Shown one piece after another: positions 38,316-54,384 of a stretch of 64,000 nt of DNA. The position numbers and the translations under genes were made by a program. The DNA comes from Bacteroidota bacterium (lineage in GTDB: Bacteria > Bacteroidota > Bacteroidia > Chitinophagales > Chitinophagaceae). The stretch lies in assembly GCA_028875875.1 (NCBI GenBank), contig JAGWUV010000002.1, forward strand, positions 1 to 64,000, read 5' to 3'. How positions within the stretch are numbered: the first letter of the stretch is position 1; the number at the start of each line of letters is the position of its first letter. The notes below the pieces were generated by a model. It made no database searches and was not told where the DNA came from. It saw only the letters and a program-made list of their open reading frames with translations.

Positions 38316-39010
38316 TCAATATTCAAATACATTAGATGAAATAGTTTCCCCTTGAATACTTGGAATAAACAGCAATATTTGAAAAGTGCAACGTTTGTTA
38401 TAAAGCAAAATCCATGCTGACTGCACATTTTGTAAATACAAAATAGTATCTGAGATTAGTCTTTCATCAATTGCAGTCGGGTTACCGTGTACAAATGCAT
38501 AACGCTTCTCCTGCATAAATTTTAAGTTCGCGTAAATATAATCGTAACCAATAGCTTTTAAATCGTCCTTAAAGTTCGCGAAAAAAAATTGTATATAATT
38601 GATCCAGTTGTAGGCTGCCTATAAATGAATATCGCTTTAATAAATCTTTTGAAATGTATACGTGAATTTGTCCCAATCCTTTCTCGAAAAATCTTTCCAT
38701 TAAATGCTCGAACAAACTCCAAAATAAGAGAACAATTAATAACCTCTTTGGAACCTTTTAATTCCCTAATTACATCTCCATCTGACAATATTAGTCTTTC
38801 CCATTTCAGCTGCATCAAATGTAGCAATACATGTATATTATAGCTAATGGCACCCGTGAATGATGATGTGGGGATTTTGCAGGTTACACTTTTGGAATCA
38901 GAAAGTATTTGCTCCTGAGTATTCTGTACATATTCGCAAATTGAACATTTCATCTCCTGAATAATCCCTGAACAATTACCGCAAATAAATTTATAATTCC
39001 AGATGCCCAT
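38316..39010 (-). pseudogene. Zinc-ribbon protein gene split by a frameshift at an A8/T8 run
   Basis: The first frame (39010 to 38558) begins MGIWNYKFICGNCSGIIQEM and carries two CxxC pairs (CGNC, CSIC), a zinc ribbon. It ends YNFFSRTLRTI. At the run of eight A at 38581-38588 the other frame continues openly as FANFKDDLKAIGYDYIYANL, KFMQEKRYAFVHGNPTAIDE, to a stop at 38316. Joined, the product would be about 230 residues. The break may be a mutation, a sequencing error or programmed slippage. It lies at the end of the Ubl-conjugation operon; its function is not recognised. Confidence 0.6.
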
Positions 39011-39066: not shown

Positions 39067-39390
39067 TTAACACCATTTTACTTTCCCTTTTCTAATAAAA
39101 AAATGACTTCTGCATCCTTTGTTTCTGCAAACAGATGGAGAAACGCTAATGAAATGTTTATTCTTAACTGTAAAACTCCAACAAGGACTTGCAGATTTCA
39201 AGGTATTCAATTGGATGATATTATGACACCCGCAGGGACATTTAAAAGCTAGCAGCCATGGATCCTGTTTATTACCGACAATATAGACTACTCTTTCTCT
39301 AAGAATAACAGGCAACTCCTGAATGTATTGAATTTTGTATTTTGGTTCAAACCGTTCATCTAGCTTATGTAATATTTTCAAGAATTTCAT
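39067..39390 (-). CDS. DUF6527-family protein of the Ubl operon
   Basis: This 107-residue protein has FKCPCGCHNIIQLNTL and a second Cys cluster near the C-terminus (SVCRNKGCRSHFFIRKGKVK). This Cys/His-rich layout, with SPCWSF between, fits DUF6527, a family found next to bacterial Ubl, E2 and JAB-E1 genes. From memory of recent work, such proteins may process or remove the Ubl. Its start overlaps the E1 stop by 4 nt, so it is co-translated with it. Confidence 0.72.
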   Translation of the reverse strand: MKFLKILHKLDERFEPKYKIQYIQELPVILRERVVYIVGNKQDPWLLAFKCPCGCHNIIQLNTLKSASPCWSFTVKNKHFISVSPSVCRNKGCRSHFFIRKGKVKWC

Positions 39391-40778
39391 ACAGATAATT
39401 CTGGCAATTCGATAAACGGTTGTACATCTCCACGTCCTATTTTTTTAAGCAGATACGCATCCACTTGCAAATCATCTTCGTTTACATTTACAATATACCC
39501 ACCGGTAATATCTATTGTTGAAACGGCAAAGTGATTGCTTGACTCATATTTAAAAGCGTGTATCCGATTCAAAAATTCATTGACTGCATGACTTGCGATC
39601 TGCATATTAACACTAATCACTGCCGGGTTATTAACGTTAATATTTTTTATGTATGAATTCTTCTGCAGATTTTCATATTCTTCCGGATTTTTGCGGTACT
39701 GACTTGCTGCCCGCAGGTCTTCTGTTGTAAAAACCCCTCTTGATATCAGAGAAGATTTTCCAGGTTGTATGTAATGAACTGTTGCACATATTTGCTGAAT
39801 ACCTCCAATTTTATTGGCTTCCAGCTTAACCCCCAAATCAAAATATGGGATTAAATAAAATGTACAAAGCTGGTTTAACAAATAGCGCCCGTCAACACTA
39901 TCAACACAGCCAAAAATCAAATCACATTCAATCAGCGATTGCAATGCTTTTGCAGAATGATACAAATTGGACTGGTAACATTCAATCAAGGTGCCTAATC
40001 CAGTGCGTTTTATTGCCTCCGCAATTACCGCTACTTTTGGCCGATGCAGCTCTGCATCAGATCGGGTAGCATTCAATATCCTGTTTAAATTTTTTAATTC
40101 AATAGTATCAGGGTCTATCAGTATTAATTTCCCTACTCCTAACCTGACCATCTGCTCTATCAATGGGCTGCCTGTTCCTGAACATCCTATAACACCGATT
40201 GTCATTTTTTTTAGTTCGGCATATGTTTTATCACCAAAAGCCTGAATGGTTCTAAGTGCAAAAGCATCGTTTTGAAACATTAAATGAGTTTGATAGATCT
40301 CAATCTGGTCACCAGAAATAACCACTTTATCTATCGGCTCATGGTGTAGGTCATCAAAAAAAAATCGGCCGAAAATTTTACCGCCTGGTAACATAACTGC
40401 ACTGGCATGAGGTTTATCATTTAATGCCCAGCCAAAAGCAGAATCAAAAAACTCTCTGTCCGACCTATCATCAGCATCCGAGAACTGACTGTATCCACCG
40501 GGGTGACTGTGGATCTTCAGGATGGCTAAATCTGATTTACCTAAACGATCAAAATAATGCAAAATCCTTGCTGTAGGCCAAATAAGTATATCAAATTCCC
40601 TTGAGTAGCATTCATTATGCGGAATAAGAGTTATATCATGAACGGTCAAGATAATTTTATTGGAAGAAAAATGTCTTCCACAAATTGCGACAGCAACAGC
40701 TTCTCTTCCATCTTCTGGGAGAAGGTGTTCTTGCAGTATTGTATGATGCAGACCGGATATTCTAAGCTGTAATTCCAT
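39387..40778 (-). CDS. JAB-E1 fusion protein (ThiF-type E1 of a bacterial Ubl pathway)
   Basis: From ATG 40778 the protein has 463 residues; a start at 40805 is possible. The N-terminal JAB/MPN metalloprotease-like domain has HSHPGGYSQFSDADD (90-104), giving the JAMM ligands HxH and Asp. The ThiF-type adenylation domain follows: IGVIGCSGTGSPLIEQMV, LILIDPDTIELKNLNR, CVDSVDGR. Where E1 proteins often have CLxC, this one reads SSLIS (about 39745-39760), so the usual catalytic Cys may be a Ser. It would activate the Ubl encoded upstream. It overlaps the E2-like gene by 17 nt. Confidence 0.85.
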   Translation of the reverse strand: MELQLRISGLHHTILQEHLLPEDGREAVAVAICGRHFSSNKIILTVHDITLIPHNECYSREFDILIWPTARILHYFDRLGKSDLAILKIHSHPGGYSQFSDADDRSDREFFDSAFGWALNDKPHASAVMLPGGKIFGRFFFDDLHHEPIDKVVISGDQIEIYQTHLMFQNDAFALRTIQAFGDKTYAELKKMTIGVIGCSGTGSPLIEQMVRLGVGKLILIDPDTIELKNLNRILNATRSDAELHRPKVAVIAEAIKRTGLGTLIECYQSNLYHSAKALQSLIECDLIFGCVDSVDGRYLLNQLCTFYLIPYFDLGVKLEANKIGGIQQICATVHYIQPGKSSLISRGVFTTEDLRAASQYRKNPEEYENLQKNSYIKNINVNNPAVISVNMQIASHAVNEFLNRIHAFKYESSNHFAVSTIDITGGYIVNVNEDDLQVDAYLLKKIGRGDVQPFIELPELSV

Positions 40779-41178
40779 AAGGTTGTTTAATAAATTCATT
40801 TTCAAACCAAAAGTTCACCAGACTCATATGAGTTGACAAATCATCGACACCTGGTCTCCATGGGTTTTCCGCCGTGCGATGCCGTGACCATCTTTGAAAA
40901 TTTTGTCCTTCTATCGGTTGGCTAGTAATAGCATTAATCGCCTTTCCGTCTTTTCTTGCCAGAGCGGGGAAAAAGTAGGCCATATCCAACGCTGTCCGAG
41001 GATAACCTGTTTCTATTTTAATGGCAACGGAAACCTTTTCTAAGTTATAACCAAGAATGACCGGGTAATCATGGATAATCACCCATTGCATTCCCCGATC
41101 ATGTATTGCCTCCCAAGCCAAGCCTAAACTGTCAAGAAAAAAAATATCCTCCTCCGGTAACTTGAATTGCCTTCTCAT
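40762..41178 (-). CDS. Prokaryotic E2-like (Prok-E2_E type) protein without cysteine
   Basis: This 138-residue protein has the family pattern FFLDSLGLAWEAIHDRGMQW, VIIHDYPVILGYN, GYPRTALDMAYFFPAL, and QRWSRHRTAENPWRPGVDD. It is encoded between the Ubl and the JAB-E1 fusion. It contains no cysteine at all, so a thioester on this protein is impossible. A Ser, Thr, His or Asp would have to take part, or it acts only as an adaptor. The conserved His-Arg cluster (RWSRHRTAENPW) is the likely active-site region. Confidence 0.8.
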   Translation of the reverse strand: MRRQFKLPEEDIFFLDSLGLAWEAIHDRGMQWVIIHDYPVILGYNLEKVSVAIKIETGYPRTALDMAYFFPALARKDGKAINAITSQPIEGQNFQRWSRHRTAENPWRPGVDDLSTHMSLVNFWFENEFIKQPYGITA

Positions 41179-41179
41179 A

Positions 41180-41521
41180 CTAGTTACCTCCTTCTGTTTG
41201 ATCCAATGGAATCGTCATAAATTTTTCGATTCCCGGCTCAGTAAAACAAACAGTTTGCTCATAGTCAATTTTAACCACTTTACCACCTTTAAACCGCTGG
41301 TTAAGCTGGAACCGATTAACAGGATTTTTACCAGCCAGTGATAAAATTTCACGGCCTGTCAAACATTCCTGCTTTACCTTATATTTTTCCCGGTCAACCA
41401 TTATAATATAATGATGACCCTTGGGAACAGGCCTCCCTTCCATAGCAAAAACTTCAATGTCAATCTCAAGGATAACCATTTCACCCCTTTCTTCTTTGTT
41501 TTGTTCTTTCATAATTTTCAA
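41180..41521 (-). CDS. Ubiquitin-like modifier (multiubiquitin-type domain)
   Basis: This 113-residue protein has a charged N-terminal extension and one beta-grasp domain: HYIIMVDREKYKVKQECLTG, REILSLAGKNPVNRFQLNQR, VKIDYEQTVCFTEPGIEKFM, TIPLDQTEGGN. This is the multiubiquitin (PF14452-like) pattern, here as a single unit. The end is GG followed by Asn, so one residue would have to be removed to expose a C-terminal di-glycine for activation. The E2-like gene follows 1 nt downstream. It leads the operon and is divergent from an ECF sigma gene. Confidence 0.82.
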   Translation of the reverse strand: MKIMKEQNKEERGEMVILEIDIEVFAMEGRPVPKGHHYIIMVDREKYKVKQECLTGREILSLAGKNPVNRFQLNQRFKGGKVVKIDYEQTVCFTEPGIEKFMTIPLDQTEGGN

Positions 41522-41613
41522 TTTTGTTTATGTATAAAAGCCAAAAGAGTGACAAGACTACTCAAAAGCACCATGTCACGCTTTGGAGTTTAGAGTGTAT
41601 AAATTATTTTCTA

Positions 41614-42282
41614 ATGCAAGAAATTTTACTAACCCCAACACCCTTCAATAAGGAGCCAGATGAACGAGTCATAACGGGACTTCAGAATGTCTCTGATCCA
41701 TCAGAATTGAAATATTTTCAATTTGAATTTTATACTCGGTATGCAGGATATGTTTATAAAGCCGCATTGCATCATTTCAGGTTATATGATCAGACCCAAT
41801 ATCTTGCTTCAGAGTTACTGCAAAAAGTCTTTATAAAAGCATTTGAAAAAATAGGAAGGTTTGCGTTTCCAGCAAAAGCCATTCCTTCAGAATATACAAA
41901 GATTATTAAGGCCTGGCTGGGGAAAATTGCGTTTAATGAATCGCGAAAGGTTATAGGCCAGATTATTAATGATCAAATAGAATACACTGATATCCTGCCT
42001 GACCATTGCTATGATCAGTTTGATGATATTATGGGGGCAGCTGAAGAAGAAGTGCCAAATGAGTTTCAGCAAATATTGCAGGAAGCAATGAATCAGCTTT
42101 CTAAAAAAGAATTGGATGTTATCCTTACTTATGCAGGTGAAGGTTGCATCAATTCTACCAAGCATTTAAGTAAAAATGCTTTAAGATATCTTTGTGAATA
42201 CTATGAAACAACACCCGAAGCTATACGACAATGTAAAAAGAGAGCATTAGATAAAATTAAAAAACACTGTTTCAAAAATTAA
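41614..42282 (+). CDS. ECF-type RNA polymerase sigma factor-like protein
   Basis: From ATG 41614 the protein has 222 residues; a longer frame from 41524 would enter the divergent promoter. The first half has a sigma region 2-like helix set (YVYKAALHHFRLYDQ, ASELLQKVFIKAFEKIGRF). The end has a region 4-like HTH (LRYLCEYYETTPEAIRQCKK, RALDKIKKH). It probably directs transcription of the divergent Ubl operon or of its own operon; that target is inferred. The next gene starts 22 nt downstream. Confidence 0.72.
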   Translation: MQEILLTPTPFNKEPDERVITGLQNVSDPSELKYFQFEFYTRYAGYVYKAALHHFRLYDQTQYLASELLQKVFIKAFEKIGRFAFPAKAIPSEYTKIIKAWLGKIAFNESRKVIGQIINDQIEYTDILPDHCYDQFDDIMGAAEEEVPNEFQQILQEAMNQLSKKELDVILTYAGEGCINSTKHLSKNALRYLCEYYETTPEAIRQCKKRALDKIKKHCFKN

Positions 42283-42304: not shown

Positions 42305-42658
42305 ATGAAAAAAACAAACGTGGAAAACACTCAATTGAAACAAGATCTGCTCATACAGCATGCGTTAAGAACTGGCGGGTTCGTTTTTCCACAAACTGTT
42401 GCTGAGGTTGAATCATTTGAAAAAAAATTTGGAACAACCGATGTTCAGTTACCGGAAGAATTACAAACCCCTGTATTTTTAAATACTCCTTCTAAAAAAA
42501 CAGCAAGGCCGAAGGTGATAAAAATACAGCAAGAAAATTTGGCAATGGCTGCCAGAGAAGAAATGGGTAAGCTCCCCAAGGAATTACTTTCCAGGATAGA
42601 AAACGACATTAAAGAAGCCGATAAAAAGTCAAAACAAAAGAAAGCAAAAAAGAAATGA
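42305..42658 (+). CDS. Hypothetical linker protein between sigma factor and ImmA/IrrE gene
   Basis: This 117-residue hydrophilic protein begins MKKTNVENTQLKQDLLIQHA, has a middle part LRTGGFVFPQTVAEVESFEK and a lysine-rich C-terminus (KEADKKSKQKKAKKK). Its stop overlaps the start of the ImmA/IrrE-like protease gene by 4 nt. Small proteins in this position are often the substrate or repressor partner of the protease. No HTH is visible; an anti-sigma or inhibitor role is an inference from order. Confidence 0.7.
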   Translation: MKKTNVENTQLKQDLLIQHALRTGGFVFPQTVAEVESFEKKFGTTDVQLPEELQTPVFLNTPSKKTARPKVIKIQQENLAMAAREEMGKLPKELLSRIENDIKEADKKSKQKKAKKK

Positions 42659-43470
42659 GTACAAATTTACCAGAGATTGCAGCTTTGGCTGAGCATATAG
42701 CCGAGGAAAACATTTCTCGTGGTAAAGTGAATTTAGAAAAAATAATAAAAAAGAAAGGCATAACAATTATAAGTGGCAACTATGGTAATTATTTTGTAGG
42801 AGAGTTAATACACAAAGCCAAAAAATTCTATATTATTGTAAACCAAGACATGATAGACCCGACAGCCCCAGGTCGTTTAAGATTCACCATAGCACATGAA
42901 TTGGGTCATTACTTTATTGACGATCACCGTAAGCTTTTAAAAAAAGGTATTTCTTTATCGCATAACTCGGATTACAATTTAAATACTAAGAGTACACTGG
43001 AAAAGGAAGCCAATCATTTTGCTTCAAACTTATTAATGCCCAAGGCAAGATTTATTAATACTGCAAAAAAGTTTGAACCAGGTTTAAAAGCCATCATAGG
43101 TCTCAAGCAAACATTTGAAGCATCATTTGAGAGTACTGCTATTCATTATCTAAAACAAGATTTGAATTTGGGTATATTCATTAAATGGAAAATGGATCAA
43201 AGCTTTCATTATGCTTCTTATTCTCCTTCTTTTGGTAAAAGAGTTGGTATATCAGGTGCCCCACCTATTAGATTCGAAAAAGAATACATCGAAAATATTT
43301 TTAGCGAATTGGATGAATTAAGGGGTAAAAATGATTATATAGAAAATGCCACTACATTATCAAAATGGTTAGCTACAATTTCTCCAAGCTCCAAGAATGA
43401 CTTAATTGGCTTGGAGCAAACTATCCCACTTGGTAATTATGGTTGGATGACTTTTTTGGCCTTTGCATAG
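42655..43470 (+). CDS. ImmA/IrrE-family metallo-endopeptidase
   Basis: This 271-residue protein has the zinc motif FTIAHELGHYFIDDH (HExxH at 81-85) and a third ligand region in LEKEANHFASNLLMP (Glu in EANHFA), the ImmA/IrrE hallmark. An RFTIAHELGH strand and helix precede. The C-terminal region from about 150 on is specific and unrecognised. ImmA/IrrE proteases cleave repressors and switch on stress or mobile-element genes. Here it follows a sigma factor and a small protein and lies next to a Ubl operon. Confidence 0.88.
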   Translation: MSTNLPEIAALAEHIAEENISRGKVNLEKIIKKKGITIISGNYGNYFVGELIHKAKKFYIIVNQDMIDPTAPGRLRFTIAHELGHYFIDDHRKLLKKGISLSHNSDYNLNTKSTLEKEANHFASNLLMPKARFINTAKKFEPGLKAIIGLKQTFEASFESTAIHYLKQDLNLGIFIKWKMDQSFHYASYSPSFGKRVGISGAPPIRFEKEYIENIFSELDELRGKNDYIENATTLSKWLATISPSSKNDLIGLEQTIPLGNYGWMTFLAFA

Positions 43471-45416: not shown

Positions 45417-45689
45417 ATGAGTATGGTATTTTTAACCCCAGATGAACTGAAACGCTTTATAATAGAAGCAGTAAATGATGCATTTAAAAACGAATTAAGT
45501 ATTATCCCTGCACAAAACCCAAACGAGATTGTAACGCTGGAAAAAGCAGAAGAAATTTTACACTTATCCAGACACACGATCAAAAAATACGTGAGATTAG
45601 GGCTTTTGCAAAAGGCTTTGCCTAATGTGAAGGGATATCGGTTTTACATAAAGGATCTCCATGCATTTGCTTCCCAATACAGGAATTAG
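45417..45689 (+). CDS. Excisionase-like helix-turn-helix protein
   Basis: This 90-residue protein has a MerR/excisionase-type winged helix in its C-terminal half: VTLEKAEEILHLSRHTIKKY, VRLGLLQKALPNVKGYRFY, IKDLHAF. Bacteroidota elements often carry such a helix_turn_helix_17-type protein near the left end as a recombination directionality factor or regulator. It is well placed to serve the integrase at 54516-55880. Confidence 0.82.
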   Translation: MSMVFLTPDELKRFIIEAVNDAFKNELSIIPAQNPNEIVTLEKAEEILHLSRHTIKKYVRLGLLQKALPNVKGYRFYIKDLHAFASQYRN

Positions 45690-45811
45690 TTGTGAATTCC
45701 AAGAAGCTTACGGGTAAAGGGTGTGTTTACGGCTATTACCCTCAATATTTTACATTTTCCGTCGCAATTTTTCTTTAAGCAATCAGCAAATTTTAAAGCT
45801 AAATACTTTTT

Positions 45812-45835
45812 TTATTCAAAAATCCCCTTGAATAA
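45812..45835. repeat. 8-bp inverted repeat upstream of the HUH gene
   Basis: TTATTCAA (45812-45819) and TTGAATAA (45828-45835) are exact reverse complements around AAATCCCC. It lies 44 nt upstream of a small HUH Rep-like gene, where rolling-circle elements usually have their nick-site hairpin. The role is inferred. Confidence 0.45.
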
Positions 45836-45879
45836 GCTACCGCATTACAAAAAAGTAAAGCATATTAAAACATATCAAT

Positions 45880-46305
45880 ATGTATAAAAATTTATTTAAA
45901 GACAATTATGCAAAATACTTGATGTCTTATGACTGGGACATATGGGGAACACTAACTACTGAATACTTTCTTTCTCAATCATCGGCGGAGAGAGCAGTTA
46001 AAAGGCTTGACCTAAAATTGAGAAAGAAGTTTAGGAATTATAGATTATTCTTTGTTGCCGAACCCTTCAAACAAAGGGGTTACCATATTCATTTTATTGG
46101 AAAATTTATTAGTGACAAGCAAGACAAAACTGTCACCCAGATTGGTAAAATAATAGAAAATGAATGGCAGACTACGACCAGCAATAAAAAGCGAAGTGTC
46201 AACAAATTAAAAAAATACGAGCATAAGCAGAATGCAATTTTCTACATCTTAAAAGAGATTTATAACACTAAGGTTTCTTATGACTTTTTGGGAGACGCAT
46301 GGTAA
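45880..46305 (+). CDS. Small HUH-type Rep/relaxase-like protein
   Basis: This 141-residue protein shows the three rolling-circle replication motifs in order: DIWGTLTTEYF (motif I-like), GYHIHFIGKF (HUH metal-binding motif, about 67-76) and NAIFYILKEIYN (Tyr-x-x-Lys, catalytic Tyr about 126). It is short compared with full Rep proteins but has all key residues. It may nick the circular form of the element for replication or mobilisation. Confidence 0.72.
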   Translation: MYKNLFKDNYAKYLMSYDWDIWGTLTTEYFLSQSSAERAVKRLDLKLRKKFRNYRLFFVAEPFKQRGYHIHFIGKFISDKQDKTVTQIGKIIENEWQTTTSNKKRSVNKLKKYEHKQNAIFYILKEIYNTKVSYDFLGDAW

Positions 46306-46399
46306 TAAGGTATATAATCGAAGACAACCGAATACAAATAGAGCAATTTAATTTGAATTAATGTAATTGTAAATGGGTGTATCTAACTTTAGTTGAAAG

Positions 46400-46762
46400 A
46401 TGACTATCATGGAAAAAACATGCCCTTATTCAGGTATTCAATTTAAGCCAAAGCGCCGTAACCAAGTATTTGCTTCGCCGCAAAATAGAATACGCTACCA
46501 CAACGAAAATGCAGCAAAAGCAAGAGAAATGGAACAGGACATTAAAAAAATAAGAAACAACCTGAAGATCTTAGCAAGTCTGGGGATTAAAAATGGAGAA
46601 CGTAAGAGTTTCGATAAAGACTTACTGTTAAAAAAAGGCTACGATCCTTTTGCAGTAAGTAGACTTTTTATGTTCGAAAATACATTGTGTAGCAGAGTTG
46701 AGCATTACGTATTACTCAAATCTTCCGACAATAAAACTTTCACTTTTGTAAATCTCAAATAA
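46400..46762 (+). CDS. Small element protein with CPYSG/NRIRYHN pattern
   Basis: This 120-residue protein has an N-terminal motif KTCPYSGIQFKPKRRNQVFA, then SPQNRIRYHNENAAKAREM, recurrent in Bacteroidota element proteins. It resembles half of a zinc-ribbon-like nucleic-acid-binding segment with one Cys. Another in-frame start lies at 46409. It stands between the HUH protein and two tiny membrane proteins. The function is not known. Confidence 0.68.
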   Translation: MTIMEKTCPYSGIQFKPKRRNQVFASPQNRIRYHNENAAKAREMEQDIKKIRNNLKILASLGIKNGERKSFDKDLLLKKGYDPFAVSRLFMFENTLCSRVEHYVLLKSSDNKTFTFVNLK

Positions 46763-46764
46763 AA

Positions 46765-46923
46765 ATGACTGACCCATCAAACTTGGATTTAGATAAGCTT
46801 GGTATACAAATACAACCAACTAAAAATACTCTTTTAAAATTAGTAATTGTAGGAGTTGCAATGGCTTTAATCGGCGGAACCCTCCTTTTTATTTCAAAAA
46901 AACAAACCAAGTCAAATGCTTAA
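46765..46923 (+). CDS. Tiny membrane protein (52 residues)
   Basis: The frame from ATG 46765 reads MTDPSNLDLDKLGIQIQPTK, then NTLLKLVIVGVAMALIGGTL, then LFISKKQTKSNA. It has a charged N-terminal part and one clear transmembrane helix. It starts 2 nt after the preceding stop and overlaps the next gene by 8 nt, the spacing of a real operon gene. Unknown function. Confidence 0.6.
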   Translation: MTDPSNLDLDKLGIQIQPTKNTLLKLVIVGVAMALIGGTLLFISKKQTKSNA

Positions 46924-47107
46924 TTTTTATAGTGAAGATAAATTACAAAATACTTTAGAGGACTTACTTGATTCTAAATATTTTAAGGTTGCTACAGTAC
47001 TATTAGCAGGAGTTGCGGGGATTTACCTTCTTGGTCATCTTTTTAAAATTACAGCCCACACAGTCCGTGGTTATAATGAACTTAAATCTGCCTTCAAAAA
47101 CATATAA
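46916..47107 (+). CDS. Tiny membrane protein (63 residues)
   Basis: The protein has 63 residues with one transmembrane helix (FKVATVLLAGVAGIYLLGHL) between short charged tails. It overlaps the preceding small membrane gene and ends 3 nt before the serine recombinase. The pair could form a small membrane complex of the element. Unknown function. Confidence 0.6.
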   Translation: MLNFYSEDKLQNTLEDLLDSKYFKVATVLLAGVAGIYLLGHLFKITAHTVRGYNELKSAFKNI

Positions 47108-47110
47108 CAA

Positions 47111-47692
47111 GTGAATAAAGTTGCTTTATACTGCCGAGTATCAACAAATGACCAAGATACAGCAAATCAAGAGCTAAGATTGATTGATTATGCTAAAGAG
47201 CGCAACTTAAATTATGATTTATACAAAGAGGTAGAGAGTACAAGGAAAACCCGACCTATAAAGCAAGAGATGTTGAGTAGGCTTAGAAAAAAAGAATATG
47301 ATGCCGTCATTGTTTATAAGCTCGACAGGTATGCCCGCTCTTCTGCCGAACTAATTTTAGAAGTAAAGGAGTTATTTAATAAAGGGGTCGCATTTATCTC
47401 TATCAGTGAAAGCCTTGATTTTTCTACTGCGTCAGGTAAGTTGCATTTTCAAATATTATCTGCCTTTGCTGAATTTGAAAGAGAGCTTATTCGTGAGCGA
47501 ACAATTGAAGGATTGAAACGTGTTAAAATACAAGGTTCAAGGCTCGGACGTCCCAAAGGAGCAAAAGATTCCAAACCACGTCGTAAGAGCGGGTATATCA
47601 TCCGAGAAGCAAAAAAACGCCAGTCTTCAGATGAAGTTAATGGCAACTATTTAGGCTTAGATACATATATAGAAAAATCCTCCCCCAAATAA
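47111..47692 (+). CDS. Serine recombinase (resolvase/invertase family)
   Basis: The protein has 193 residues from a GTG start. The resolvase domain has YCRVSTNDQD (catalytic Ser11), VYKLDRYARSS, FAEFERELIRERTIEGL and the DNA-binding hinge GSRLGRPKGAKD. The C-terminal tail is shorter than in typical resolvases and lacks a full HTH. It could resolve multimers or invert a segment of the element. It is separate from the tyrosine integrase that should carry out integration. Confidence 0.92.
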   Translation: MNKVALYCRVSTNDQDTANQELRLIDYAKERNLNYDLYKEVESTRKTRPIKQEMLSRLRKKEYDAVIVYKLDRYARSSAELILEVKELFNKGVAFISISESLDFSTASGKLHFQILSAFAEFERELIRERTIEGLKRVKIQGSRLGRPKGAKDSKPRRKSGYIIREAKKRQSSDEVNGNYLGLDTYIEKSSPK

Positions 47693-48355: not shown

Positions 48356-49810
48356 ATGTTTGAACAGACCTTTAAAAATATTGATGACATACTCCACAAA
48401 GACGCTGGTTGCGGCAGTGAATTAGACTATGTAGAGCAAACCTCATGGATTTTGTTTCTCAAATATTTGGATGACTTAGAGAAAGACCGTGCCACAGCAG
48501 CCGAACTGACTGGCAAGACCTACACACCTATCATTGAAAAAGCATACCAATGGACAGATTGGGCATGTCCTAAAGGTAAAGATGGCAAACTTGACCATCA
48601 CAAGGCAATGTCTGGAGATGACCTTACCGACTTTGTGAACAATAAACTATTTACCTACCTCAAGAAGTTTAAGACCAACGCTGAGAGTGCCAACACCCTC
48701 GAATATAAAATCGGTGAAATTTTCAGTGAACTGAAAAACCGACTCCAAAGTGGTTACAATCTTCGGGAAGTAATAAACCTTATCGATCAGTTGCGTTTCC
48801 GTACACATGCAGAAAAGCATGAGATGAGTCATTTGTACGAAGACAAGATTAAGAATATGGGTAATGCTGGGCGTAACGGTGGGGAATACTATACCCCTCG
48901 TCCGCTCATTACTACTATTGTAAAAGTGGTTGCTCCAAAAATCGGCGACAGGATATATGATGGTGCTTGTGGTTCAGCGGGTTTCTTATGCGAAGCATTC
49001 AACTATCTGAAAACAAGTAAGTCTCTATCTACAAAAGAAACGGAGATACTGCAAAAGCAAACCTTTTACGGCAAGGAAAAGAAATCGTTGGCGTATATAT
49101 TGGGTGTTATGAACATGATTTTGCATGGTGTGGAAGCCCCTAACATCATACATACCAATACGCTTGCTGAAAACCTTGCTGACATACAGCAAAAAGATCG
49201 TTACGATATTGTGCTCGCCAATCCTCCCTTTGGTGGTAAGGAACGTGCCGAAGTGCAACAAAACTTCCCTATTAAAACAGGGGAAACCGCTTCACTCTTT
49301 TTACAGCACTTCATCAAAATTTTAAAAGCTGGTGGCAAGGCAGGTGTAGTGATTAAAAACACTTTTTTGAGCAATATTGATAATGCTACTATTGCCATAC
49401 GCAAAACCTTGTTGGAAAACTGCAACCTGCATACCGTGTTGGATTTACCCAGCGGCACCTTTACGGGTGCAGGTGTAAAAACTGTGGTGTTGTTTTTTGA
49501 AAAAGGCAAAGCCACGCAAAAAGTTTGGTTTTACCAGTTGAACCTTGACCGCAATTTAGGCAAGACCAACCCACTCAACGAAAATGACTTGGCGGATTTT
49601 GTTTCCTTACAGAAAACATTTGGTGACAGCGAAAACTCTTGGACGGTAAATGTGAAAGACATTGACCAAGATACTTTTGATTTGAGTGTAAAGAACCCGA
49701 ACAAAAAAGAAGAAGTGACGCTCCGATCACCACAAGCCATATTGGAAGAAATGAAAGCATTAGACGAAGAAAGTGCAGAAATATTAAACTCAATTTTGGA
49801 ATTGATATGA
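48356..49810 (+). CDS. hsdM: Type I restriction-modification methyltransferase subunit HsdM (second system)
   Basis: This 484-residue protein has an N-terminal HsdM_N domain (EQTSWILFLKYLDDLEKDRA), AdoMet motif DGACGSAGFL (about 203-212), preceded by GGEYYTPRPLI, and the catalytic NPPFGG (about 288-293). It is clearly different from the first HsdM (4532). The stop overlaps the start of hsdS by 4 nt. It methylates the target set by HsdS and is the first gene of an operon hsdM-hsdS-rhuM/fic-hsdR. Confidence 0.96.
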   Translation: MFEQTFKNIDDILHKDAGCGSELDYVEQTSWILFLKYLDDLEKDRATAAELTGKTYTPIIEKAYQWTDWACPKGKDGKLDHHKAMSGDDLTDFVNNKLFTYLKKFKTNAESANTLEYKIGEIFSELKNRLQSGYNLREVINLIDQLRFRTHAEKHEMSHLYEDKIKNMGNAGRNGGEYYTPRPLITTIVKVVAPKIGDRIYDGACGSAGFLCEAFNYLKTSKSLSTKETEILQKQTFYGKEKKSLAYILGVMNMILHGVEAPNIIHTNTLAENLADIQQKDRYDIVLANPPFGGKERAEVQQNFPIKTGETASLFLQHFIKILKAGGKAGVVIKNTFLSNIDNATIAIRKTLLENCNLHTVLDLPSGTFTGAGVKTVVLFFEKGKATQKVWFYQLNLDRNLGKTNPLNENDLADFVSLQKTFGDSENSWTVNVKDIDQDTFDLSVKNPNKKEEVTLRSPQAILEEMKALDEESAEILNSILELI

Positions 49811-51003
49811 AGAGTTGGGAAAGAAAAAAATTAGGCGATGTATGTGGTTTTGTACGTGGACCATTTGGTGGAAGTTTGAAGAAGAATATCTTCAAGCCTG
49901 AAGGCTACGCCGTATATGAACAGCAACATGCTATTTATGATCAGTTTGATCATATACGATATTTCATTGATGAAAATAAATTTAATGAAATGAAACGCTT
50001 TGAATTAAACTCAGGAGATCTAATTATGAGTTGCTCGGGTACAATGGGAAAGATTGCAATCGTTCCTGAGAATATTAAAAAAGGAATTATAAATCAAGCA
50101 TTGTTAAAACTTACTCCATCCAAAAAAGTTTCAACTGTTTTCTTGAAATTATGGATGCAAAGCGAAAGTTTTCAAGAGAGCTTGAGAGAATATTCAGGTG
50201 GTGCTGCAATTCAGAATGTAGCCTCTGTCGCTACTTTAAAGCGAATTGAAATCCCCCTTCCTCCACTACTCGAACAACAACGCATTGTTGCCATTTTAGA
50301 TGAAGCCTTTGCCGCCATAGCCAAGGCAAAAGCCAATGCCGAACAAAACCTCAAAAACGCCAAAGAACTTTTTGAAAGCTATTTACAGGGTGTGTTTGAG
50401 AAAAAGGGTGATGGTTGGGAGGAAAGAAAATTGGGGGAAGTAGCGGAATACGATAAAAACCAAAACATTCATTTAGGATTGCCTTATGTTGGATTAGAAC
50501 ACATTGAATCAAACTCGGGTAGATTTATTGGAAGTTTGGCATCACAAGAAGTAAAGAGTTCAACTTTTTATTTTGATAAACAACACGTTCTTTATGGGAG
50601 ATTGAGACCGTATTTGAACAAGGTTTTATTGCCAGATTTTAAAGGACATTGTTCAACAGAAATATTCCCAATTAAAGTGAATGGACAAGTTGCAAGAGAA
50701 TTTTTGTTCTATTGGCTAATCGCAGTTTCTACAGTAAAAAAAATAGATGCGACTTGGACAGGTGCAAGAATGCCAAGAGCAAATATGAATCAGGTTTTAG
50801 AATTTGACTTTGCTTTTCCTTCCCTCAAAGAACAACAAACCATCGTACGCCAATTGGGTGCCCTGCGAGCCGAAACGCAAAAGTTGGAAGCGGTGTATCA
50901 ACAAAAAATTGCTGATTTGGAGGAACTAAAAAAATCCATTTTGCAAAAAGTATTTGCAGGGGAGTTGAAAATGGATAGTATAAAAGTTGCCCAAACCGTA
51001 TAA
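49807..51003 (+). CDS. hsdS: Type I restriction specificity subunit HsdS (second system)
   Basis: This 398-residue protein has two target-recognition domains. The first (SWERKKLGDVCGFVRGPFGG to LPPLLEQQRIVAILDEAF) and the second (WEERKLGEVAEYDKN to SLKEQQTIVRQLGAL) are each followed by a conserved spacer helix. It confers sequence specificity on HsdM and HsdR. It overlaps hsdM by 4 nt and is followed 11 nt later by a RhuM-Fic gene. Confidence 0.94.
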   Translation: MKSWERKKLGDVCGFVRGPFGGSLKKNIFKPEGYAVYEQQHAIYDQFDHIRYFIDENKFNEMKRFELNSGDLIMSCSGTMGKIAIVPENIKKGIINQALLKLTPSKKVSTVFLKLWMQSESFQESLREYSGGAAIQNVASVATLKRIEIPLPPLLEQQRIVAILDEAFAAIAKAKANAEQNLKNAKELFESYLQGVFEKKGDGWEERKLGEVAEYDKNQNIHLGLPYVGLEHIESNSGRFIGSLASQEVKSSTFYFDKQHVLYGRLRPYLNKVLLPDFKGHCSTEIFPIKVNGQVAREFLFYWLIAVSTVKKIDATWTGARMPRANMNQVLEFDFAFPSLKEQQTIVRQLGALRAETQKLEAVYQQKIADLEELKKSILQKVFAGELKMDSIKVAQTV

Positions 51004-51014
51004 ATCAACGGGTA

Positions 51015-51986
51015 ATGAATGAAATAGTCATATATACAACTGCTGATAAAAAAACTGAAGTAGAAGTTCAGTTTAATGGCGATACCGTTTGGCTTAACCA
51101 AATGCAAATGGCTACATTATTCAACCAATCCAAACAAAACATAAGCTTACATATTAATAACTGCTTTAGGGAAAAGGAACTCAACAGGAAGGCAACTGTC
51201 AAGGAATCCTTGACAGTTCAAAAAGAAGGTAAGCGGAACGTTACACGTAAGATAGAATATTACAATCTGGATGTGATTATTTCCGTAGGATACAGGGTAA
51301 AATCTCTAAGGGGCACACAATTCCGCCAATGGGCAACCCAACGCCTGAAAGATTACTTGGTAAAAGGCTATGCCATTAACCAAAAGCGATTGGAGGAATT
51401 AGGCAAAATGGTACAACTGATTGAACAATCTGGCAAAGCTGAAGCCTTGCAATTAAACGAAGCCAAAGGACTATTGGATATTTTGAGCCATTACACCAAA
51501 AGTTTTGTATTGCTCAATCAGTATGACAGTCGAAAGCTGCTAACAAGCAACTTAAATGAGAATATTACCTATGAAATTGAGTACGAAGAAGCTATAAACG
51601 CCATAACAGCGTTGAAAAAACAACTCATGGCAAAAAAAGAGGCGACGAACTTGTTTGGTAAGGAGAAAGACAAGGGTTTCAAAAGTTCGTTGGAAAGCAT
51701 TGTGCAAACTTTTGGCGGACACTACTTATATCCAAGTATAGAAGAGCAGGCGGCTCATTTACTGTACTTTGTTATTAAGAATCATTCCTTCAACGATGGG
51801 AATAAACGCATCGGGGCATTTCTATTTATCTGGTTTTTAGAGAAGAATAAACACCGTTTCAAGCAATCAGGTGAATTAAAAGTGAACGACAATGCACTTA
51901 CAGCTATTGCTTTATTGGTAGCGCAAAGTGCCCCCGAAGAAAAAGAACTAATGATACAACTAATCATTAACTTAATCAGAGACTAA
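51015..51986 (+). CDS. RhuM-Fic/Doc fusion protein in RM operon
   Basis: This 323-residue protein has an N-terminal RhuM-like domain (VWLNQMQMATLFNQSKQNIS, then YYNLDVIISVGYRVKSLRGT, then FRQWATQRLKDYL, residues about 24-120). A C-terminal Fic/Doc domain carries HSFNDGNKRIGAF (about 257-269), the canonical nucleotide-transfer motif. RhuM-Fic fusions are frequent passengers of type I systems. It lies between hsdS and hsdR with short gaps (11 and 1 nt). It may modify a host or phage protein. Confidence 0.88.
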   Translation: MNEIVIYTTADKKTEVEVQFNGDTVWLNQMQMATLFNQSKQNISLHINNCFREKELNRKATVKESLTVQKEGKRNVTRKIEYYNLDVIISVGYRVKSLRGTQFRQWATQRLKDYLVKGYAINQKRLEELGKMVQLIEQSGKAEALQLNEAKGLLDILSHYTKSFVLLNQYDSRKLLTSNLNENITYEIEYEEAINAITALKKQLMAKKEATNLFGKEKDKGFKSSLESIVQTFGGHYLYPSIEEQAAHLLYFVIKNHSFNDGNKRIGAFLFIWFLEKNKHRFKQSGELKVNDNALTAIALLVAQSAPEEKELMIQLIINLIRD

Positions 51987-51987
51987 T

Positions 51988-54384
51988 ATGAACGAAGCAG
52001 AAACACGAGCGGAACTCATAGACCCTAAGCTAAGGGCTTGCGGCTGGGGCGTTATAGAAGGCTCGAAAATTCTTCGTGAATATAATATTACTGCGGGTAA
52101 AATACAAACAGGCGGAGGCAGGGGCAAAAGAGAAATTGCCGATTATGTGTTAGTGTATAAAGGTATTAAGCTTGCAGTAGTTGAAGCTAAAAGTGATGAA
52201 TTGGAAGTAGGCGAAGGCGTAATGCAAGCGAAGAAATACGCCCAAAAACTACAACTGGAAACTACCTATAGCACTAACGGAAAAGCCATCTACCAAATCT
52301 GTATGAAAACAAGTGAGGAAGGTTTGGTAACAGATTTTCTTAGCCCCGAAGAACTTTGGAATAAAACTTATGGTTCAATTCCTAATCAACAACTGACTAT
52401 TGACAATGAAAGTTGGTTTGAAAGATTTGCTGCAGTACCGTTTGAGGATATTAATAAATCAAAACCACCGAGATATTATCAGGAAAGCGCAGTAAACGCA
52501 GTGATGAAAGCGATTGCTCAAAAAAAGGACAGAATTTTACTTACGCTTGCTACCGGAACAGGTAAAACAACCATCGCTTTTCATATTGCTTGGAAATTGT
52601 TTCAAACAAGATGGAATATACATTGGGATGGCACTCGTAGACCAAGAGTACTTTTCCTTGCTGATAGAAATATATTAGCCAATCAAGCCTATGGAGAGTT
52701 TACTAAATATTCAGCATTTAAAGATGATGCTTTGGTTCGCATTAGCCCAAAAGCAATTCGGGATTTGAATGATGAAGGAAAATCTACTAAGGTTAATACC
52801 TTTCTTACGGATAAAAAAAGAGCAGTCCGGGTTCCAACAAATGGCAATATCTTCTTTACGATATTCCAAACTTTTATGACTGGTGAACAACCAAACTTCG
52901 GCGAATATCCTGCCGACTATTTTGATTTCATCATCATTGACGAGTGCCACCGTGGTGGAGCTAATGATGAAAGCAACTGGCGGAGCATTTTGGAATATTT
53001 CAGTCCGGCAGTACAACTGGGTTTAACTGCCACACCCAAGCGAAAGGATAACGTGGATACTTACCGTTATTTTGGCGAGCCAGTGTATGTCTATTCTTTG
53101 AAAGAAGGTATCAATGATGGTTTCCTTACGCCTTTCAAAGTAAAACGCATCAAAACAACATTGGACGATTACCGCTACACTTCAGATGATACTATCGTTG
53201 AGGGTGAAATAGAAGAAGGTAAGCTGTATGAGGAGAAGGACTTCAACCGTACCATAGAAATTGTGGAACGGGAAGCCAAGCGTGTAAATATCTTTTTAGA
53301 TGAAGCTAATCAAAATGAAAAGGCGATTATTTTCTGTGCCAATCAAGGGCACGCAGCTTTGATAAGAGATTTGGTAAATCAAAACGCAAAAAGCAAAGAC
53401 CCATTTTATTGTGTTCGTGTTACCGCCAATGATGGAGAAGAAGGCGAAAGACTATTGAGAGAATTTCAGGACAACGAAAAAACCATCCCCACCATACTCA
53501 CCACTTCACAAAAACTGTCTACTGGAGTGGATGCAAGGAACATTCGCAATATAGTACTGCTTCGCCCTGTAAATTCGATGATTGAGTTTAAGCAAATTGT
53601 TGGTCGGGGCACTCGTATGTTTGATGGCAAAGAGTTCTTTACGATTTACGACTATGTTGATGCCTATAAACACTTTAGTGACCCTGAATGGGATGGAGAA
53701 CCCATTGGAGAAGAGCCGAATGAAATAAAAGAACCCAGAGGAGAATATAAACCCAGAGAACCTAAAGAGCAAAACGAAGAGAACGAACGCAGACAGAAAA
53801 TTAAAGTCAAGCTTGCCAAAGGAAAAGAACGGCAAATTCAATACACCAGCCAAACTTCATTCTGGAGTGCCGATGGCAGACCTATTTCAGCAGAAGAATT
53901 TTTAAACAACTTGTTTGGTGAATTACCAAAGTTGTTCAAGGATGAAGAAGAGTTACGTAAACTGTGGAGTAACCCATTCACACGAAAAACCTTGCTGGAA
54001 AAATTAGAAGAAGCTGGCTTCCCCAAATCAGACTTGCTGACTTTGCAGAAGCTCGTGGATATGGAAAAAAGCGACTTATATGATGTGCTGGAATACGTTT
54101 TTAACGGTGATTATATCGCCTTGACAAGGGAAGCAAGAACGAAGGCTGCCGAAGCAACAATTTTTGCCTTACTCAATGACAGGCAAAGGGAGTTCATCTC
54201 ATTCGTATTGAGCAAATACATAGAAACAGGTGTGGAAGAACTTGACCAAGAGAAACTACCTATCTTGCTAACCAACAAGTATCAGTCCTTAGAGGATGCT
54301 AAGGATATTCTGGGTGATGTGGCGAACATAAGCAAGCTGTTCATTGAGTTTCAACAATACCTGTATGAGAAGAGGATTGCATAG
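51988..54384 (+). CDS. hsdR: Type I restriction endonuclease subunit HsdR (second system, EcoEI-like)
   Basis: This 798-residue protein has a nuclease-type N-terminus (IADYVLVYKGIKLAVVEAKS), Walker A LATGTGKTTIAFHIAW (about 187), the DEAH-like box IIIDECHRGG (about 315), LTATPKR and the helicase C-terminal QIVGRGTRMF. It is shorter than the first HsdR (1075), and the C-terminal arrangement is like EcoEI-type R subunits. It translocates and cuts unmodified DNA with HsdM and HsdS of the same operon. Confidence 0.95.
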   Translation: MNEAETRAELIDPKLRACGWGVIEGSKILREYNITAGKIQTGGGRGKREIADYVLVYKGIKLAVVEAKSDELEVGEGVMQAKKYAQKLQLETTYSTNGKAIYQICMKTSEEGLVTDFLSPEELWNKTYGSIPNQQLTIDNESWFERFAAVPFEDINKSKPPRYYQESAVNAVMKAIAQKKDRILLTLATGTGKTTIAFHIAWKLFQTRWNIHWDGTRRPRVLFLADRNILANQAYGEFTKYSAFKDDALVRISPKAIRDLNDEGKSTKVNTFLTDKKRAVRVPTNGNIFFTIFQTFMTGEQPNFGEYPADYFDFIIIDECHRGGANDESNWRSILEYFSPAVQLGLTATPKRKDNVDTYRYFGEPVYVYSLKEGINDGFLTPFKVKRIKTTLDDYRYTSDDTIVEGEIEEGKLYEEKDFNRTIEIVEREAKRVNIFLDEANQNEKAIIFCANQGHAALIRDLVNQNAKSKDPFYCVRVTANDGEEGERLLREFQDNEKTIPTILTTSQKLSTGVDARNIRNIVLLRPVNSMIEFKQIVGRGTRMFDGKEFFTIYDYVDAYKHFSDPEWDGEPIGEEPNEIKEPRGEYKPREPKEQNEENERRQKIKVKLAKGKERQIQYTSQTSFWSADGRPISAEEFLNNLFGELPKLFKDEEELRKLWSNPFTRKTLLEKLEEAGFPKSDLLTLQKLVDMEKSDLYDVLEYVFNGDYIALTREARTKAAEATIFALLNDRQREFISFVLSKYIETGVEELDQEKLPILLTNKYQSLEDAKDILGDVANISKLFIEFQQYLYEKRIA

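What the first reader, a model, noticed from the sequence alone, without database searches (positions are those of the whole stretch)
39067..41521. Ubiquitin-like conjugation operon in which E2 has no cysteine and E1 has Ser in place of CxxC
The E2-like protein (40762-41178) contains no Cys. The JAB-E1 fusion reads SSLIS where a CLxC-type motif is expected. The Ubl ends GGN. A cascade with oxyester rather than thioester intermediates would explain this; I recall recent reports of such diverged bacterial pathways (Bub type) with DUF6527 proteins, which I cannot check here.
Basis: partly seen in the sequence, partly recalled or inferred. Interest (0 to 1): 0.75.

Follow-up and report, generated by a model that had tools for sequence, protein, structure and literature searches.

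The report
Bub ubiquitin-like operon with sigma switch
This is a bacterial ubiquitin-like protein-tagging operon of a recently described kind that appears to use oxygen rather than cysteine chemistry, and beside it sits what looks like an undescribed on-switch: a sigma factor, a small partner protein and a protease.

Summary
The operon is real and intact. By sequence it belongs to the Bub (bacterial ubiquitination-like) family: its E2 matches Citrobacter BubB (E 7e-23) and its JAB-E1 matches Citrobacter BubCD nearly end to end (E 2e-76). Oxyester chemistry is therefore not new; I recall it from Ye et al. 2026, whose text is not held.

The E2 has an invariant Ser98-x-His100 (83 of 83 dereplicated). 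But the E1 'SSLIS' aligns with the structural zinc CxxC of ThiF/MoeB; in 9 of 84 E1s neither position 350 nor 351 is Ser. The conserved candidate in the E1 crossover loop is Tyr384 (83 of 84), changed to Phe in PDB 9EAV. 'GGN' is not a di-Gly end: the mature end is a single Gly.

The newest part lies outside the given coordinates: a divergent sigma factor / small protein / M78 protease trio, with a mirrored pair of TGTCACKCTT boxes in the shared promoter region. The pair occurs in 17 of 21 sigma-bearing Bub loci and 0 of 67 others; the tree-corrected test is not significant. Whether the boxes are promoters or an operator is open: their gaps keep helical phase.

The parts
41180..41512 (-). bubA: ubiquitin-like protein, one Ubl domain, 110 aa from ATG; mature end predicted at Gly108 (41189-41191), followed by a Gly-Asn tail
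   Evidence: Multi_ubiq 8.4e-8; tail comparison over 92 loci; start codon
41186..41191 (-). GGAGGT: codons of Gly108-Gly109 and a Shine-Dalgarno-like site just before the E2 ATG
   Evidence: sequence
40762..41178 (-). bubB: E2-like protein; predicted nucleophile Ser98 (40885-40887), His100 (40879-40881)
   Evidence: Prok-E2_E 3.6e-36; PDB 9EAE_C/9EAV_D BubB E 7e-23; S98 and H100 in 83 of 83 dereplicated
39387..40805 (-). bubCD: JAB protease domain fused to E1. Tyr384 at 39651-39653 (numbered from Lys1 of the 471-aa translation 39387-40802); SSLIS 350-354 at 39741-39755
   Evidence: Prok-JAB 5.8e-7, ThiF 4.6e-30; PDB 9EA4 BubCD E 2.2e-76; conservation
39067..39390 (-). bubE: DUF6527 protein, candidate Ser-His protease; Ser86 39133-39135, His96 39103-39105; invariant Cys51, Cys55, Cys93
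   Evidence: DUF6527 3.9e-21; S86 and H96 in 84 of 84; no fold match in PDB
41526..41554 (-). box facing bubA: TGTCACTCTT (41554-41545) and a -10-like TAAAC (41530-41526)
41574..41604 (+). box facing SIG: TGTCACGCTT (41574-41583) and a -10-like TATAAAT (41598-41604); 19 bp from the other box
41614..42282 (+). SIG: ECF-like sigma-70 family protein, 222 aa
   Evidence: AF2 pLDDT 85.7, pTM 0.52; Foldseek best hits are sigma factors; Bub-linked homologues over the Sigma70_r2 cut-off; the window protein itself below cut-off
42305..42658 (+). ANT: 117-aa partner, proposed anti-sigma; no Pfam family
   Evidence: conserved next to SIG; no family
42655..43470 (+). M78 (ImmA/IrrE-type) metallopeptidase, CapP-like
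   Evidence: Peptidase_M78 5.2e-14

Best explanation
A Bub-type ubiquitin-like conjugation operon (bubA-bubB-bubCD-bubE) in what looks like a mobile defence island of a genome that is probably Bacteroidota. Inferred working: BubC adenylates the C-terminal Gly of BubA (after loss of the Gly-Asn tail). The Ubl passes through an oxygen ester, most likely on E1 Tyr384 and then on E2 Ser98, to target amines. The JAB domain and BubE trim or remove it. Expression is switched by the divergent SIG / ANT / M78 module: stress activates the M78 protease, ANT (anti-sigma) is destroyed, and SIG transcribes both its own operon and bub through the mirrored TGTCACKCTT boxes. Shown here: homology, synteny, conservation, and the association of the boxes with SIG loci. 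Inferred: all catalysis, the acceptor role of Tyr384, and the whole switch.
For: Family membership. Synteny of A-B-CD-E. E2 Ser98 in 83 of 83 and E1 Tyr384 in 83 of 84 dereplicated. SSLIS aligned to the zinc CxxC and variable. Y->F at this column in 9EAV_A. DUF6527 Ser86/His96 in 84 of 84. SIG belongs to the sigma factors. Box pair in 17 of 21 SIG loci, 0 of 67 non-SIG loci, 4 of 2100 shuffles. One strict box/-10 match in the 3.5-Mb genome, here. The gene next to ANT changes between M78, S8 and C14 proteases. Island context.
Against: No biochemistry here. Ubl similarity to Citrobacter BubA is weak (E 0.8). Tyr384 does not align exactly with the ThiF/MoeB loop Cys (MAFFT puts that Cys at L379), so it could be a helper and not the acceptor. 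The window SIG is below the Pfam cut-offs. Four of 21 SIG loci lack the box pair. Tree-corrected: over six pairs the boxes follow SIG in 3.8 on average, never the opposite, p 0.06-0.25. The 17 gaps are all 8-10, 19-21 or 29-31 bp, a helical phase that fits one cooperative binder (an operator) at least as well as two separate promoters. Most SIG modules away from Bub lack the box. That ANT is an anti-sigma is not tested; four SIG-ANT loci without M78 (L030, L042, L050, L078) show no recognised protease.
Confidence: 0.7

Rival explanations
1. One reading: a Ser of the E1 SSLIS motif carries the Ubl as an oxyester.
For: Ser is the commonest residue at 350 and 351 (76 and 77 of 94).
Against: S351 and S354 align to zinc-ligand positions; neither 350 nor 351 is Ser in 9 of 84 dereplicated E1s, of which some (L002, L049, L076) have neither CxxC nor Ser in the motif but keep Tyr384.
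Confidence: 0.07
2. BubC makes no covalent E1 intermediate: E2 Ser98 attacks the BubA adenylate directly, and Tyr384 helps position or activate it.
For: Tyr384 is not in exact register with the ThiF/MoeB loop Cys; 9EAV holds E1, Ubl and E2 chains with Tyr changed to Phe, which could equally trap a transfer complex.
Against: My recollection of the Ye et al. abstract speaks of oxyester, not thioester, intermediates throughout; not checked.
Confidence: 0.3
3. The mirrored TGTCACGCTT boxes are an operator for a repressor (for instance ANT or an oligomer) and not two promoters read by SIG.
For: Mirrored repeat; gaps fall only at 8-10, 19-21 and 29-31 bp, as if both boxes must lie on one face of the helix; CapS, a known Bub-associated repressor, binds the same half-site at two spacings (PMC13373217, passages).
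Against: The pair tracks SIG; both sides share an outward TTT and A/T-rich stretch that moves with each box; ANT has no recognised HTH family.
Confidence: 0.4
4. The SIG/ANT/M78 genes are passengers of the island with no role in bub control.
For: Five SIG modules lie away from Ubl operons, three beside infB-like, truB-like and ribF-like genes (gene names by eye).
Against: Divergent position in 20 loci, the window included; the SIG label changes 11 times on the E1 tree and the box pair never moves the opposite way; two more modules lie opposite other Ubl operons (L133, L134).
Confidence: 0.12

Closest known systems
Bub pathway (Citrobacter BubA, BubB, BubCD; PDB 9EA4, 9EA5, 9EA8, 9EAE, 9EAV; Ye et al. 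[quoted passage not shown]
   Same: Same protein families, gene order, JAB-E1 fusion and E2 W-S-R-H motif; DUF6527-family gene downstream as in most relatives here
   Different: One Ubl domain on its own gene with a two-residue tail, against three Ubl domains fused to E2 in the Citrobacter relative L012; different regulator
CapH+CapP, CapW and CapK+CapS regulators of immune operons (PMC13373217, passages read)
   Same: Encoded beside Bub operons; M78-type protease as in CapP (CapP's ImmA/IrrE-type identity is recalled); mirrored boxes resemble the CapS palindromes in layout
   Different: Instead of the HTH repressor CapH there is a sigma factor and the 117-aa ANT; box sequence differs from the CapS half-site TTAA
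Bil (bacterial ISG15-like) systems
   Same: Bacterial Ubl, E1, E2 and JAB protease; the Ubl domain resembles BilA (8U38, E 0.006)
   Different: Bil uses E1 and E2 cysteines (recalled); here E2 has Ser and no conserved E2 Cys exists
ThiF / MoeB
   Same: Adenylation domain with ATP site and D-x-x-x-x-C-x-D motif
   Different: Zinc cysteines and loop Cys absent; JAB domain fused

Membership tests
Bub pathway | E2 of the BubB / Prok-E2_E family with invariant Ser | tested here: met
Bub pathway | JAB-E1 fusion homologous along its length to BubCD | tested here: met
   residues 20-470 of 472, E 2.2e-76
Bub pathway | Ubl of the BubA kind | tested here: inconclusive
   Pfam Multi_ubiq over cut-off but BubA hit only E 0.8; position in the operon fits
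Bub pathway | Serine protease with Ser-His dyad (feature recalled; that it is DUF6527 is my inference) | tested here: inconclusive
   DUF6527 present, Ser86/His96 84 of 84; no activity or fold evidence
Bub pathway | Oxyester E1~Ubl and E2~Ubl intermediates | not testable with these tools
   needs biochemistry
Canonical Cys-based Ubl cascade (eukaryotic, Bil) | Catalytic Cys in E1 and E2 | tested here: not met
   no Cys in E2; no conserved Cys column in E2 (top 12 of 93); in E1 only C299, in the ThiF/MoeB core motif
CapH+CapP regulator | M78 protease | tested here: met
CapH+CapP regulator | HTH repressor CapH beside the protease | tested here: not met
   neighbours are SIG and ANT; ANT has no Pfam hit at E 1
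ECF sigma factors | Sigma-70 regions 2 and 4 | tested here: met
   met for the family: L042, L030, L032 over the region 2 cut-off and L042 over region 4, Foldseek of the window model; the window protein itself is below both cut-offs

The most novel reading that the evidence does not exclude
A fourth family of immune-operon controllers: an ECF sigma factor held by a small anti-sigma (ANT) that is destroyed by an exchangeable protease (M78, subtilisin-like or caspase-like), turning on itself and a Ubl-conjugation operon through a mirrored, helix-phased pair of boxes. The operon it controls passes its Ubl through a tyrosine (aryl) ester on E1 to a serine ester on E2.
Probability: 0.35. Interest if true: 0.7.

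Novelty: new variant of a known kind. Interest (0 to 1): 0.5.

Why it matters
The conjugation chemistry is a known kind, but the corrected residue map (E1 Tyr384, E2 Ser98, single-Gly Ubl) tells experimenters which residues to mutate. If the sigma module controls Bub, it would be an activator-type control of a putative bacterial immune pathway, unlike the repressors described in the passages read of PMC13373217, and the defined box pair makes it directly testable.

Tried and rejected
Rejected: SSLIS as catalytic serines; GGN as a di-Gly end; Cys-free E2 as diagnostic; the 150-aa ORF 38558-39010 as an operon part (only one E 0.1 match among ORFs of the other loci); the Pontibacter 200-aa gene as a SIG homologue (no hit). 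Dropped on checking: my first argument that a varying gap between the boxes speaks against a repressor operator. The gaps are helix-phased and CapS tolerates two spacings; for this I lowered the switch reading (novel case 0.45 to 0.35, best explanation 0.75 to 0.7) and raised the operator rival (0.25 to 0.4).

Led nowhere: paper searches for the Bub papers found two citing papers, and the originals are not held. Searches for a sigma/IrrE link: none held all terms; one held three of four terms, of which the 20 listed were irrelevant by title. So novelty of the switch rests on these searches and on passages of PMC13373217. hhalign to ThiF gave a poor C-terminal alignment, so MAFFT was used. The DUF6527 fold search found nothing. 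The box was looked for near SIG in nine stretches fetched apart (L135's sigma-like gene was picked by eye, not by the profile): the pair in L132 (the same locus as L003, already counted); one exact half-site in L130; one half-site with one mismatch in L131 and one with two in L134; none in L127, L128, L129, L133, L135 (L133 has a diverged mirrored element, read by eye).
Full report
WHAT IS THERE. Four minus-strand genes at 41521-39067 overlap or nearly touch. They match Multi_ubiq, Prok-E2_E, Prok-JAB plus ThiF, and DUF6527, all above Pfam's cut-offs. The E2 contains no Cys. The genome held (3,525,333 bases, 74 contigs) has this one Prok-E2_E match, and the family was found in 9 of 395 genomes of the phylum, the window's own included, so the operon is rare but not unique. 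No tool named the organism; the nearest named relatives of the E1 are Bacteroidota.

FAMILY. Against solved structures the E2 matches Citrobacter BubB (9EAE_C, 9EAV_D, E 7e-23). The JAB-E1 matches Citrobacter BubCD from residue 20 to 470 (E 2.2e-76). The Ubl hits are weak (BilA E 0.006; BubA 155-229 E 0.8). The Bub family was defined by Gong et al. 2025 and Ye et al. 2026; I saw these only as citations in PMC13373217 and PMC12687455 (passages), and their texts are not held. That Bub uses oxyester intermediates and has a Ser-His protease is my recollection of the Ye et al. abstract. PMC13373217 (passages) says that 219 of 544 Bub operons are associated with CapW or CapH+CapP and 59 of 544 with CapK+CapS, and that Bub has not been shown to protect against phage.

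HOMOLOGUES USED. I added six plasmid loci (of 40 listed from 213 matching records) and eight genome-search loci. This gave 94 E1, 93 E2 and 84 DUF6527 sequences including the window. L001 is the window itself and was dropped; L021 has no visible E2 or Ubl. Of the ten loci without DUF6527, eight (L002-L009) are short loci that end near the E1; L077 and L080 lack it within the stretch held. At 90% identity 84 E1, 83 E2 (L045 left out, because the wrong segment had been cut) and 76 DUF6527 remain; the real L045 E2 also reads WSRH.

E2. Ser98 and His100 of the Q-x-W-S-R-H motif are present in 83 of 83. No column holds Cys in more than 12 of 93 sequences. Cys-free cores are common (37 of 83), so absence of Cys is not the signal; the invariant Ser is.

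E1. Aligned with E. coli ThiF and MoeB, S351 and S354 fall on ThiF C169/C172 and MoeB C172/C175, which I recall as structural zinc ligands. Five distant relatives keep Cys at both places (L006, L008, L009, L014, L015), and three of these (L006, L014, L015) also have a second CxxC near the C-terminus, as expected of a zinc site. Six other rows carry a C-terminal CxxC without the first (L028, L032-L035, L040), so the second motif alone says little. S350 is Ser in 69, S351 in 68 and S354 in 51 of 84; neither 350 nor 351 is Ser in 9 of 84. The nucleophile-capable columns conserved at 90% or more in the E1 domain are T193, S208, T210, S212, K256, C299, Y316 and Y384. By position S208-S212 lie in the ATP-site Gly-rich loop and C299 in the core motif; only Y384 lies in the crossover loop, 9 residues before the invariant Pro393, where the loop Cys of ThiF and MoeB lies 8 before theirs. 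MAFFT places that Cys at L379, five residues away, with a gap between, so exact equivalence is not shown. Among the three BubCD sequences in the PDB, 9EAV_A differs from 9EA5_A in the printed alignments only by Tyr to Phe at this column, and both carry Asp to Ala at the site labelled D104A. The depositors therefore thought this Tyr important. I put the chance that it is the acceptor at about 0.6.

UBL END. 50 of 92 Ubls are fused to the E2 and 42 are separate. 27 of 42 separate ones end exactly at the conserved Gly (24 end TEG and one each SEG, QDG and TPG). In nearly all fusions the E2 part follows that Gly (L005 and L007 are diverged, and L045 printed blank), and the PDB constructs divide BubA and BubB there (BubA ends ...VNNG; BubB begins EE). 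The window's ...LDQTEG|GN has a two-residue tail whose codons GGA GGT look like a Shine-Dalgarno site before the E2 ATG. Since many Ubls need no trimming, the proteases probably act mainly in deconjugation or on fusions (inference).

DUF6527. Cys51, Pro52, Cys55, Trp71, Pro85, Ser86, Cys93 and His96 are invariant in 84 of 84. The model is all-beta after an N-terminal helix (pLDDT 86.2) with no PDB match (best E 0.79). A Ser86-His96 dyad and a Cys cluster are inferred.

REGULATOR. Divergent from bubA lie SIG, ANT and M78. SIG looks like a sigma factor: Foldseek's listed hits are sigma factors or transcription complexes (best E 5.8e-4, the only one under 0.001; TM-scores low, 0.2-0.3 by the query), and Bub-linked homologues L042, L030 and L032 pass the Sigma70_r2 cut-off; the window copy does not (E 0.08). 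Its profile hits 395 of 395 genomes of the phylum, typically at 1e-8 to 1e-14, as expected of a large family. Of the 95 loci scanned (the window twice), 12 have SIG, ANT and M78, 9 SIG and ANT (one of them L001, the window), 1 SIG only, 40 M78 only and 33 none; M78 hits were taken anywhere in the locus, and some loci end close to bubA, so 'none' includes 'not visible'. Where M78 is missing, a downstream gene is caspase-like in L031 and L038 (Peptidase_C14 5e-15 and 4e-18) or a subtilase in L032 (2e-28); in L031, L038, L050 and L078 ANT is about 280 aa long, without a Pfam match where scanned (L031, L050, L078). L030, L042, L050 and L078 show no recognised protease. A partner that changes between protease classes is what an anti-sigma degraded on demand might show, but this is inference.

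BOXES. Between SIG and bubA lie two mirrored, outward-facing copies of TGTCACKCTT. The pair (up to 2 mismatches each, 3-45 bp apart) occurs in 17 of 21 SIG loci, 0 of 67 non-SIG Bub loci and 4 of 2100 single-base shuffles. Missing: L032, L043, L045 (two half-sites the same way), L047 (one half-site). Within Bacteroidota it is 16 of 19 against 0 of 18, leaving aside L036 (its contig ends just upstream; it has the pair) (set assigned by me from record titles; L040, titled only 'bacterium', was counted in). The Acidobacteriota locus L046 also has the pair. Fisher p is 9e-8 and 1e-14 for the Bacteroidota and the full table, but these ignore relatedness. On a quick E1 tree SIG changes 11 times, 8 forced by well-supported branches. 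Over six independent pairs the boxes go with SIG in 3.8 on average and never against, p 0.06-0.25, which cannot reach 0.05 (83 rows used, 11 left out for short or missing upstream DNA). The strict pattern TGTCACKCTTN{12,15}TAWAC occurs once in the genome, here.

PROMOTER OR OPERATOR. The 17 gaps fall at 8-10 bp (11 loci), 19-21 (4) and 29-31 (2) and nowhere else; six long gaps drawn at random were as well phased in 0.0009 of trials, relatedness ignored. Such phasing suggests that both boxes must face the same side of the helix, which favours one cooperative binder; CapS is an example of a repressor that accepts two spacings of one half-site. For promoters speak the outward TTT and A/T-rich stretches that go with each box and the link to a sigma gene. 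I cannot decide between them. SIG modules elsewhere: two lie opposite other Ubl operons (L133 with DUF6791, ThiF and DUF6527; L134 with JAB and ThiF), five are alone, and most lack the box.

CONTEXT. Further along the window are an HTH_17 gene, a G2P-like replication gene (below cut-off), a resolvase, Type I restriction genes with a RhuM-Fic gene (48356-54384) and a tyrosine integrase (54516-55880). This looks like a mobile defence island; its ends were not determined.

VERDICT. The sigma-linked controller is the part that may be new.

Noticed in passing
window 48356-54384: Type I restriction-modification operon (hsdM, hsdS, RhuM-Fic protein, hsdR) followed by a tyrosine integrase at 54516-55880 on the minus strand.
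   Followed up: partly
window 45417-47692: HTH_17 gene, G2P-like replication protein (below cut-off) and resolvase-domain gene: likely mobile-element genes.
   Followed up: no
window 41545-41583 and 16 other loci: The gaps between the two mirrored boxes fall only at 8-10, 19-21 and 29-31 bp, one helical turn apart.
   Followed up: partly
L133:4831-9813: SIG-ANT-M78 module opposite a different Ubl operon: Ubl, DUF6791, ThiF-only E1, DUF6527 and a protein with a weak HNH match.
   Followed up: partly
L134:4620-9351: SIG-ANT-M78 module opposite a YukD-like Ubl, an unknown 160-aa protein, a JAB protein and a weakly ThiF-like protein with CxxC motifs.
   Followed up: partly
L127-L131: Stand-alone SIG-ANT-M78 modules, three of them (L129-L131) beside infB-, truB- and ribF-like genes (by eye): perhaps an ancestral chromosomal stress regulator.
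   Followed up: no
L010:2117-3913: Pontibacter Bub locus with a similar three-gene divergent block whose first gene is not recognised as a sigma factor, next to umuD and a Y-family polymerase.
   Followed up: partly
L032:1-6020: Two Bub operons on opposite strands with a SIG-ANT-subtilase module between them in Chryseosolibacter histidini.
   Followed up: no
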